Of a stretch of 64,000 bases of DNA, positions 3,232 to 47,557 are shown one piece after another (position 1 is the first letter of the stretch; every line of letters begins with the position of its first letter). The position numbers and the translations under genes are program-made. The notes beneath the pieces were generated by a model. That model worked only from the letters and a program-made list of their open reading frames with translations. It was not told where the DNA came from and made no database searches. Source of the DNA: Gemmatimonas phototrophica (GTDB lineage: Bacteria; Latescibacterota; UBA2968; UBA8231); assembly GCA_945861755.1 (NCBI GenBank), contig CAMAVQ010000007.1:1-64000 (forward strand), read 5' to 3'.

Positions 3232-4719
3232 ATGCAATTGCCCCAGCCCGATTCGGGGCGCCTCGAACGGCGCCCCCAGCTCCTGCGTGGCCTGCAGAAG
3301 CTCCTGCGCCCTGACCAGGTGATCCACCTGCCCGAGGACTTGGCGGTGTACGAGTGCGATGCCCTCTCCGCCTATCACCAGCAGCCCATGGCCGTGGCCC
3401 TGCCCGAGTCCACCGGGGAGGTATCGGCCCTGATGCGCCTGTGCCATCAGCTCGGGTTGCCGGTGGTGCCCTGGGGGGCCGGCACCGGCCTGTCGGGCGG
3501 GGCCCTGCCTCTACAAGATGGATTGCTGTTGAGCCTGGCCCGGCTCAACCACATCCTCGACATCGACCTGGCCAACCGCACGGTGACGGTGCAGCCAGGG
3601 GTCACCAACCTCAGTGTCACCAACGCGGTGCGGGCCCAGGGTTTCTACTACGCCCCCGACCCCTCCAGCCAGATTGCCTGCAGCATCGGCGGCAACATCG
3701 CCGAGAACTCGGGCGGGGTACACTGCCTCAAATACGGCACCACCACCAACAACGTGCTGGGTATCGAGGTGGTGCTGGCCGACGGCGAGGTGGTGCGCCT
3801 GGGCGGCAAGGGCATGGACCAGGCCGGGTACGACCTGCTGGGCCTTTTCACCGGCTCCGAGGGATTGTTGGGGATCATCACCGAGGCGGTGCTGCGCATC
3901 CTGCCCCGCCCGGAAAAAGCCAAGGCGATGATGGCCGCCTTTGCCGGGGTGGAGGAAGCCGGCCAGGCGGTGGCCGCCATCATCGGCGCCGGCATGGTCC
4001 CGGCAGGCCTGGAGATCATGGACCGGCTCTCCATCGAGGCGGTGGAGGCCTTTATGGGCGCGGGTTATCCCCGGGATGTGGAGGCGCTGCTCTTGGTGGA
4101 GCTGGACGGGGCGGCCAGCGAGGTGGACCACCTCATCGGCACGGTGGAGGAGTTGCTGCGCCAGAGCGGGGCCACTGAAATACACCTCGCCCGCACCGAA
4201 GAGGAGCGCCTGAAGATGTGGGCCGGCCGCAAAGCCGCCTTTCCGGCCATGGGCCGGATCAGCCCCGACTATTATTGCATGGACGGCACCATCCCGCGCC
4301 GCGCCCTGCCCCTAGTGTTGGGCCGCATCCGCGAACTGTCGGCCCAGCACGGCCTGCGGGTGGCCAATGTCTTCCACGCCGGCGACGGCAACCTCCATCC
4401 CCTCGTCCTCTACGACAGCAACCAGCCAGGCGAGCTGGAAAAGGCCGAGGAGTTGGGGCTGGAGATCCTCAGGCTCTGTGTGGAGGTGGGCGGGGTGCTC
4501 AGCGGCGAACACGGCATCGGCATCGAGAAAGAGGCGCTGATGGGTTTCATGTTCACCGAGGAGGATCTGGAGGCCCAGCGGCGGATCAAGACCGCCTTCG
4601 ACCCTTTCTGGCTGCTCAACCCGGGCAAGGTCTATCCGGTGCTGCACCGCTGCATCAAGGGGGGCCGGGCCCATGTACACCAGGGCGACCAGCGCTTCGC
4701 GCACCTGGAACGCTTCTGA
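3232..4719 (+). CDS. glcD: Glycolate oxidase subunit GlcD-like FAD-linked oxidase
   Basis: PVVPWGAGTGLSGGALPL, PDPSSQIACSIGGNIAENSGGVHCLKYGTT, VFHAGDGNLHPL, SGEHGIGIEK. Confidence 0.9.
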   Translation: MQLPQPDSGRLERRPQLLRGLQKLLRPDQVIHLPEDLAVYECDALSAYHQQPMAVALPESTGEVSALMRLCHQLGLPVVPWGAGTGLSGGALPLQDGLLLSLARLNHILDIDLANRTVTVQPGVTNLSVTNAVRAQGFYYAPDPSSQIACSIGGNIAENSGGVHCLKYGTTTNNVLGIEVVLADGEVVRLGGKGMDQAGYDLLGLFTGSEGLLGIITEAVLRILPRPEKAKAMMAAFAGVEEAGQAVAAIIGAGMVPAGLEIMDRLSIEAVEAFMGAGYPRDVEALLLVELDGAASEVDHLIGTVEELLRQSGATEIHLARTEEERLKMWAGRKAAFPAMGRISPDYYCMDGTIPRRALPLVLGRIRELSAQHGLRVANVFHAGDGNLHPLVLYDSNQPGELEKAEELGLEILRLCVEVGGVLSGEHGIGIEKEALMGFMFTEEDLEAQRRIKTAFDPFWLLNPGKVYPVLHRCIKGGRAHVHQGDQRFAHLERF

Positions 4720-5840
4720 TGTCCTGCCTGTCCACTCCCGAGGCAGTGCACGAGCGGGTGCGCCAGGCCCTGGACCAGCACACCCCCCTGCACCTCTTCG
4801 CCGGGCGCACCAAGGACCGGCTGGGCTGCCGGGCCAGCACCCTCCTCCCCCTAGATTTGTCCGGGCTGGATCAGTTGGTCAGCTACGAACCCCGCGAGTT
4901 GATCCTGGTGGTGCAGCCGGGCATGAAGCTGCGGGCCGTGGAGGAATTGCTGGTCGGGGAAAATCAGCACCTGCTCTTTGAGCCGCCCCACTGGGGCGAG
5001 GCAGCCACTATTGGCGGGGCCGTGGCCTGCAACCTGTCCGGGCCGCGCCGTTTCAAGGCCGGGGGTCTGCGCGATTTTATTTTGGGAATAGAGATGATCG
5101 ACGGCTGCGGCCAGCGCATCCGCGGCGGGGGCAAGGTGGTCAAGAACGTGACCGGCTACGACCTGCCTCGCACCCTGTGCGGCAGCTTTGGCACCCTGGG
5201 GCCGCTGACCGAACTGTGCTTCAAGGTGTGGCCCCGGCCCGCTGCGCAGCAGACCCTGACGCTCCACGGGCTGTCCCCGGCGGCGGCGGTGGAGCGTATG
5301 ACCAATCTGGCTGGCCGGCCTTGGGAACTCACCGGCCTGGCCTACACCCCCTCTCGCCTGCTGATCCGGGTCGAGGGACCAGAGCCAGCAGTGGCCGCCC
5401 AGGTGCGGCAACTCAGGGAGTTGCTGGCCGGCGAGCAGTCGCTGCTTGAAGACGCCGCCTCGCGCGCCTGCTGGCAGGATCTGCGCGAATTGACTTCCCT
5501 ACAGCCGGGTCCCGGAGAGGTGCTCTGGCGCTTCTCCCAACCCCCTGCCGAGGCCGCCCGCCTGCACCAAGCCCTGGAACCCCACGGCCTAACCCGTTAT
5601 GCCATCGACTGGGGCGGCGGCCTGTTGTGGGCCGTGTTGCCCACTTCGGCGCTGGACGTCTCCTTGCACCAACTGGCCCTCGCCCACCAGGGCCTGGCCT
5701 GGCGCTTCGCCACCGGACCCGACGACCCCAACGAAGCCGCCTTCACCCCGCTATCCCCCGGCCTGGCCCGCGTCAATCAAAAGCTCAAGGCCGCCTTCGA
5801 TCCGCAGGGGATCTTTAATCCGGGCCGGATGGGGGTTTAA
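4719..5840 (+). CDS. glcE: Glycolate oxidase subunit GlcE-like FAD-binding protein
   Basis: MSCLSTPEAVHERVRQAL...ATIGGAVACNLSGPRRFKAGGLRDFILGIEMIDGCGQRIRGGGKVVKNVTGYDLPRTLCGSFGTLG; TGATG overlap with glcD. Confidence 0.88.
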   Translation: MSCLSTPEAVHERVRQALDQHTPLHLFAGRTKDRLGCRASTLLPLDLSGLDQLVSYEPRELILVVQPGMKLRAVEELLVGENQHLLFEPPHWGEAATIGGAVACNLSGPRRFKAGGLRDFILGIEMIDGCGQRIRGGGKVVKNVTGYDLPRTLCGSFGTLGPLTELCFKVWPRPAAQQTLTLHGLSPAAAVERMTNLAGRPWELTGLAYTPSRLLIRVEGPEPAVAAQVRQLRELLAGEQSLLEDAASRACWQDLRELTSLQPGPGEVLWRFSQPPAEAARLHQALEPHGLTRYAIDWGGGLLWAVLPTSALDVSLHQLALAHQGLAWRFATGPDDPNEAAFTPLSPGLARVNQKLKAAFDPQGIFNPGRMGV

Positions 5841-37222: not shown

Positions 37223-37257
37223 CCGCGCAACGCCCCATACGTTGGGGCGTTGCGCGG
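37223..37257. repeat. Perfect palindrome CCGCGCAACGCCCCA-TACGT-TGGGGCGTTGCGCGG (15-bp stem), REP-like and possible terminator
   Basis: Direct reading; related to the palindromes at 47391-47419 and 47454-47479. Confidence 0.85.
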
Positions 37258-40450: not shown

Positions 40451-40579
40451 GAGCGTCGGGGAGCGACCCACTCCGGCTTTTCCCGAGTCCCGGTCCTGCC
40501 GCCGACGCCCAGCCCCCAGGACCTTTCCCGGCACCACTCCCCCAGTAAAAGCCTTCGGGGTCCGCTCCCCGCCGCTCTA
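40451..40579. mobile_element. MITE-like foldback element, short copy (about 129 bp)
   Basis: Left GAGCGTCGGGGAGCGACCCACTCCGGCTTTTCCC; reverse complement of right end GAGCGGCGGGGAGCGGACCCCGAAGGCTTTTACTGGG; ends match the 47333-47553 copy. Confidence 0.65.
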
Positions 40580-47309: not shown

Positions 47310-47333
47310 GAATCTGAGGCTGCGAAGTGTCAA
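47310..47333 (-). promoter_or_regulatory. Predicted sigma70 -35 TTGACA with TATTTA -10 upstream of PhyH gene
   Basis: TGTCAA at 47328-47333 (minus-strand -35), about 18-nt spacer to AT-rich -10. Confidence 0.4.
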
Positions 47334-47390
47334 GATGTGCGTGGTGCGCGTCGGGGAGTGACCCACTTCAGCCTTTCCCCAGGCGCGTCC

Positions 47391-47419
47391 CGCAGCACCC
47401 CAACGTATGGGGTGCTGCG
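47391..47419. repeat. Perfect palindrome CGCAGCACCCCA-ACGTA-TGGGGTGCTGCG
   Basis: 12-bp stem; core CCCCAACGTATGGGG is the exact reverse complement of the core at 37223-37257. Confidence 0.85.
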
Positions 47420-47453
47420 CAATACTCGTTGCACTTCCCCAAGACCCATCCCC

Positions 47454-47479
47454 CGCAACGCCATCTATATGGCGTTGCG
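47454..47479. repeat. Perfect palindrome CGCAACGCCAT-CTAT-ATGGCGTTGCG
   Basis: 11-bp stem; same CGCAACGCC arm as the 37223-37257 palindrome. Confidence 0.85.
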
Positions 47480-47557
47480 CCACGCGGACTTCCCTGCCCA
47501 ACCACTCCCCGGGAAAGGCTTCCGGGGTCATCTCCCCGCCGCTGGGCGCATCTATTT

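What the first reader, a model, noticed from the sequence alone, without database searches (positions are those of the whole stretch)
47333..47553. MITE-like foldback element upstream of the PhyH promoter
The ends form an imperfect terminal inverted repeat of about 32 bp (GCGTCGGGGAGTGACCCACTTCAGCCTTTCCC vs GCGGCGGGGAGATGACCCCGGAAGCCTTTCCC). AGATG(T/C)GC outside it is shared too. It fills the gap between a phosphatase stop (47558) and the predicted -35 of the PhyH gene (47328-47333), with no coding capacity. A related shorter copy lies at 40451-40579. Calling it a non-autonomous mobile element is inference.
Basis: partly seen in the sequence, partly recalled or inferred. Interest (0 to 1): 0.7.

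Follow-up and report, generated by a model that had tools for sequence, protein, structure and literature searches.

The report
Genus-specific hairpin repeat between genes
The sequence is one of roughly 80-100 copies of a short, non-coding, hairpin-forming repeat that has spread through five related uncultured Latescibacterota genomes, mostly behind the ends of genes, and that lacks the insertion scar and the matching transposase a classical miniature transposon should have.

Summary
Window 47348-47542 (195 bp) is a foldback element with ~32-nt inverted ends; 40453-40575 is a second, shorter copy. No other held genome of the phylum has any. Ends are sharp (GCGTCGGGGAG...CTCCCCGCCGC). Ten of 11 own copies examined have an orthologous site without the element in at least one sister species, so positions turn over. 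But none of 164 copies shows a target-site duplication of 4-12 bp. No gene was found between matching ends, and IS200/RAYT-type, IS110-type and IS91-type transposases were not found in the own genome. 'MITE' in the strict sense is therefore not supported. The arms covary, and the interior is built from smaller palindromes that covary too, so the hairpin itself is what is kept. Copies lie mostly at 3' ends, often between convergent genes (48% versus 12% of other gene pairs). Closest kinds are REPINs/BIMEs and TIR-type palindromic repeats. Here it lies just downstream of the phosphodiesterase gene; the PhyH promoter core is conserved with or without it. New variant of a known kind.

The parts
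47348..47542 (+). Full-length element, 195-bp subtype with both inner hairpins
   Evidence: CM hit 112 bits; blastn family of 68 matches in own genome; sharp ends
47348..47379 (+). Left inverted arm GCGTCGGGGAGTGACCCACTTCAGCCTTTCCC
   Evidence: pairs with right arm in the fold; covarying inner 10 bp in the family
47511..47542 (+). Right inverted arm GGGAAAGGCTTCCGGGGTCATCTCCCCGCCGC
47392..47418 (+). Inner palindrome A (GCAGCACCCC-AACGTAT-GGGGTGCTGC)
   Evidence: 33 matches against 1 control in own genome; 88 palindromes with compensating arm changes
47454..47479 (+). Inner palindrome B (CGCAACGCC-ATCTATAT-GGCGTTGCG)
   Evidence: 42 palindromes with compensating arm changes
40453..40575 (+). 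Second full-length copy, 123-bp subtype, just after an RraA-like gene
   Evidence: CM hit 65 bits; orthologous site empty in G001, G002, G004 and occupied by another subtype in G003
37225..37255 (+). Solitary palindrome A module outside any element
47328..47333 (-). TTGACA (-35-like) of the PhyH promoter, present in all five species with or without the element
   Evidence: not reported by the consensus scan

Best explanation
A genus-restricted family of non-autonomous, hairpin-forming interspersed repeats (REPIN/BIME-like in behaviour). Shown: many copies; inverted ends; modular interior made of smaller palindromes; positions that differ between sister species; no target-site duplication; arms that change together; preference for gene 3' ends. 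Inferred: the unit spreads (or spread) as a single-strand or cruciform hairpin through an unidentified enzyme that leaves no duplication, and copies survive where a strong hairpin behind a stop codon is harmless or useful (3'-end protection, or insulation of converging transcripts). The copy at 47348-47542 lies about 15 bp past the phosphodiesterase stop codon and leaves the PhyH promoter core intact, so its most likely local effect is on the phosphodiesterase mRNA 3' end or on read-through into PhyH, not on PhyH initiation.
For: Copy number against controls. Sharp ends over 164 copies. No TSD. Orthologous sites without the element for both window copies and for most of nine further copies. 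Arm covariation: inner 8 nt exactly complementary in 43% of 137 copies against 9.7% for re-paired arms, 0 of 2000 shuffles, also inside single subtypes; 11 of 31 pairs with changes on both sides, 37 cells against 6.6 in shuffles. Palindromes A and B covary. 49 of 102 copies between convergent genes against 12% of other gene pairs, p 3e-15; divergent sites depleted. Restricted to one genus: 5 of 5 genomes, 0 of 60 others of the phylum; the exact left-end pattern occurs only in four Latescibacterota MAGs among 85,462 genomes. Not in viral contigs, phages or plasmids. The 3'-end and convergent-gene habit is the published one for REPs (PMC3733652).
Against: No enzyme identified. Movement was not separated from ancestral presence plus repeated loss: filled orthologues share 10-35 bp of flank missing from empty ones. 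Function of the hairpins was not tested. The gene caller used for context was a home-made codon-usage script. All genomes are fragmented MAGs with roughly 6-8% estimated contamination.
Confidence: 0.72

Rival explanations
1. Classical MITE: an internally deleted DNA transposon moved in trans by a DDE transposase that recognises its terminal inverted repeats.
For: Terminal inverted repeats, 70-300 bp, no coding capacity, high copy number, empty orthologous sites.
Against: No TSD of 4-12 bp in any of 164 copies; 3-bp matches at chance level. No longer element with the same ends and a gene. Variable arm positions change together, which TIR recognition alone does not demand.
Confidence: 0.12
2. 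RAYT- or TIRYT-driven repeat (IS200/IS605-type HUH transposase in trans), as for REPINs, with the enzyme lost or missed in some species. This is a sub-case of the best explanation that names the enzyme.
For: No TSD, hairpin ends and REP-like location fit this chemistry. Y1 transposases occur in three of five species. Published TIRYT-associated TIRs share GGGGWSAS, close to GGGGAG at these ends.
Against: No Y1 transposase found in the own genome or G002. None of the Y1 genes seen in the genus lies between these ends; one IS200-like gene lies about 290 bp from one element end, on one side only. The strict GGGGWSAS motif is not matched.
Confidence: 0.3
3. Old, vertically inherited regulatory or terminator structures, repeatedly lost, with gene conversion between copies swapping subtypes; not mobile now.
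For: Some sites are filled in several species with different subtypes and shared short flanks. Strong covariation and gene-end location suggest function.
Against: Several sites are empty in the closest sister (G001) and in two or more others. Copies occur nested inside other copies, which needs insertion. No intrinsic-terminator pattern was found at this copy.
Confidence: 0.25

Closest known systems
REPINs / BIMEs (REP doublets forming hairpins; PMC3116915)
   Same: Two inverted ends with a spacer forming one hairpin, many copies, extragenic, non-coding, modular.
   Different: No GTAG-tagged REP; no RAYT found in the own genome; spacer built from further palindromes that also occur on their own.
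CGTC-tagged REPs (PMC3733652)
   Same: Left end carries CGTC next to the GGGGAG arm; no dedicated transposase; located at gene 3' ends and between convergent genes.
   Different: The published families have 8-9 bp stems that begin with AT pairs and a CCA tail; these were not seen. The unit here is mostly 100-280 bp, and the other end reads GCGGC, not CGTC.
TIR families of TIRYT genes (PMC3733652)
   Same: Long self-complementary terminal repeats dispersed away from a transposase; published consensus GGGGWSAS resembles GGGGAG at these ends.
   Different: No TIRYT gene with these ends was found; strict motif not matched.
Bacterial MITEs such as ERIC, Correia/NEMIS, RUP, BOX (PMC10969869; background of PMC3733652)
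   Same: Size, foldback structure, intergenic location; modularity recalls BOX and ERIC (from general knowledge).
   Different: No TSD; no related IS found; no sequence relation shown (no Rfam family in the window).

Membership tests
MITE (transposase-dependent) | Terminal inverted repeats | tested here: met
MITE (transposase-dependent) | Short, non-coding, multicopy | tested here: met
MITE (transposase-dependent) | Target-site duplication | tested here: not met
   0 of 164 copies with an exact TSD of 4-12 bp; no shift of the ends gave a consistent signal
MITE (transposase-dependent) | Autonomous partner or transposase with the same ends | tested here: inconclusive
   None found in held loci, but only stretches of incomplete MAGs were held
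REPIN / GTAG-REP | Inverted doublet forming a hairpin in ssDNA/RNA | tested here: met
REPIN / GTAG-REP | GTAG-type unpaired tag at REP end | tested here: not met
   Ends are GCGTC / GCGGC
REPIN / GTAG-REP | RAYT (Y1 transposase) in the genome next to the repeat | tested here: not met
   None in G000 or G002; none between element ends in G001, G003, G004; MAGs incomplete
CGTC-REP | CGTC tag at one end | tested here: met
   Left end GCGTCGGGGAG in most copies
CGTC-REP | 8-9 bp stem starting with AT pairs, 4-5 nt loop, CCA tail | tested here: not met
   Consensus against the description
CGTC-REP | Location at 3' ends and between convergent genes | tested here: met
TIR repeats of TIRYT genes | TIR with GGGGWSAS that flanks a TIRYT gene | tested here: not met
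   the published TIR sequences are in a figure and could not be compared

The most novel reading that the evidence does not exclude
A hairpin-in-hairpin repeat system: long foldback units, and ~27-bp perfect palindromes dispersed both on their own and inside the units, whose two arms are kept matched to each other while their sequence drifts. This would point to spread and upkeep through a hairpin DNA intermediate by an enzyme that is none of the known REP or MITE transposases.
Probability: 0.18. Interest if true: 0.7.

Novelty: new variant of a known kind. Interest (0 to 1): 0.46.

Why it matters
No paper found in the held library describes such repeats in this candidate phylum. The family is large, genus-restricted and variable between sister species, with many orthologous filled and empty sites. 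That makes it a good natural experiment on how palindromic repeats spread without a target-site duplication or a visible transposase, and on whether arm complementarity is kept by selection for RNA structure or by a DNA copying process.

Tried and rejected
Outer AGATG(T/C)GC as part of the terminal repeat: one-locus match; flank complementarity over the family equals shuffled pairs. Target-site duplications, with ends shifted by -1 to +2: none. Autonomous long copy: none. IS200-like gene near an element in G003 (L268): one-sided, reads as a neighbouring or inserted IS, not a driver. IS110 and IS91-type transposases: not found in own genome. Rfam: no hit. Intrinsic terminator at this copy: none found. 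Viral, phage and plasmid carriage: none. One ncbifam query failed on a wrong frame and was not repeated.

Full report
WHAT IS THERE. The finding describes a foldback element between a phosphatase gene and the PhyH gene. It is real. The limits, set by the ends of 164 copies and by a covariance model, are 47348-47542, 195 bp. The arms are GCGTCGGGGAGTGACCCACTTCAGCCTTTCCC and GGGAAAGGCTTCCGGGGTCATCTCCCCGCCGC. The strand folds at -116.5 kcal/mol, z -8.6 against dinucleotide shuffles. The shorter relative is at 40453-40575. No other full copy lies in the window. One solitary inner palindrome lies at 37225-37255. The neighbours are PhyH (PF05721) and a type I phosphodiesterase (PF01663), both on the minus strand.

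COPY NUMBER AND RANGE. In the own genome (4.39 Mb, 255 contigs, 93.6% complete) blastn gives 68 matches. The left-end pattern gives 90 matches against 9 for the reversed control and the right-end pattern 99 against 6. I recovered 83 complete, distinct copies there and 84 from sister species. Among 85,462 named genomes the exact left end occurs only in four MAGs, titled Candidatus Latescibacterota or Handelsmanbacteria. Blastn finds it in all five genomes of the genus and in none of 55 other relatives. A covariance model finds 42-48 copies in each of the five (48 is the cap) and none in 60 other genomes of the phylum. Nothing was found in viral contigs, plasmids or phages.

ANATOMY. The ends are sharp: conservation drops to background within a few bases, apart from a weak G-rich bias on the left and a T (54%) on the right. 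Subtypes of about 128, 147, 195 and 233 bp differ by modules: palindrome A around AACGTAT, palindrome B around ATNTATAT, a CTCGCTCGCT block, and a CCACGCGGACTTCC block. Some copies contain another copy. Other elements with related but different ends also occur (for example ends reading CAGGTCCG...).

COVARIATION. The inner stem changes on both sides together: GGGCTTTCCC, GGTTTTTCCC, AGCCTTTCCC and GGCCTCTCTC each pair with their own complement. Exact complementarity of the inner 8 nt is 43% against 9.7% for re-paired arms, 0 of 2000 shuffles, and the excess holds inside single subtypes. On a 38-sequence alignment 11 of 31 pairs have two-sided changes; 37 such cells against 6.6 in shuffles, and sliding the partner removes the signal. 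Palindrome A: 88 cases, about ten perfectly paired arm sequences, and the three most variable positions pair in 99-100% of cases against 50% when shuffled. Palindrome B: 42 cases, the same behaviour. Relatedness among copies can inflate such counts; that the excess persists inside subtypes argues that it is not the whole cause.

MOBILITY. For the 47 kb copy, G001 (the closest sister, 92% identical in PhyH), G002 and G004 have a short junction instead; G003 has a different, partial element there. In G004 the PhyH gene itself is missing at this place. For the 40 kb copy, G001, G002 and G004 are empty and G003 carries another subtype. A query made of joined flanks of nine further copies, with junctions aligned for seven of them, gives empty or near-contiguous sites in at least one sister for eight of the nine; two of those eight were judged from match coordinates only. 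So 10 of 11 copies have an empty counterpart. Filled orthologues often share 10-35 bp of flank that the empty ones lack. This can mean loss of an old copy together with flank, or insertion of a longer unit; I could not decide.

NO SCAR, NO ENZYME. None of 164 copies has an exact duplication of 4-12 bp at its flanks. No longer element with a gene between the two ends was seen in the held loci. Y1 transposases were not found in the own genome or in G002; they are present in G001, G003 and G004, but none was seen between these ends. IS110 and IS91-type transposases were not found in the own genome. The genomes are incomplete, so absence is not final.

PLACE. Of 102 copies with called neighbours, 49 lie between convergent genes (other pairs in the same loci: 12%, p 3e-15) and 6 between divergent ones (others 16%); median distance to the neighbouring gene is about 22 bp. 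The gene caller was a simple script, so the numbers are approximate. Published REP families have the same habit (PMC3733652). At the window copy the element lies about 15 bp past the phosphodiesterase stop codon. The TTGACA that lies between it and PhyH is present in all five species, so the element has not broken the promoter core.

VERDICT. A large, genus-restricted family of hairpin-forming interspersed repeats whose positions turn over between species. It works like a REPIN/BIME-type or foldback element, but it fails a defining test of MITEs (duplication; partner not found) and of REPINs (GTAG tag, RAYT) and should not be filed as either. The mechanism of spread is inferred, the 3'-end role is inferred, and the most interesting open point is why the two arms keep matching each other.

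Noticed in passing
window 37225-37255; other solitary copies: The ~27-bp palindrome A occurs on its own outside any element and inside elements at more than one place; it may be an independent dispersed palindrome.
   Followed up: partly
L125, L126, L135, L141 (own genome, C96, C121, C44, C169): A few copies sit inside a further outer imperfect inverted repeat that begins with CTAG and overlaps gene stop codons (CTAGTAGCCCATCACRTTGATG...GTGACRSAGCACTAG).
   Followed up: partly
L005, L017, L029 and the G001/G003 orthologues of L121: Related foldback elements with other ends (CAGGTCCG-GGGGTGCCC and GGGCCGGGAATACCC types), each with left and right ends matched to each other; probably sister subfamilies.
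   Followed up: no
G004:C2 around 4086-5185 (L302, L306): In G004 the PhyH gene is missing between the selenide-dikinase-like gene and the phosphodiesterase gene, while the promoter-like TTGACA region is kept.
   Followed up: no
L277 (G004:C177), about 1900-2100: Tandem repeat GCCTTTTGGGAGAGTGGGCTCCTT inside a reading frame near a Y1-transposase-like gene.
   Followed up: no
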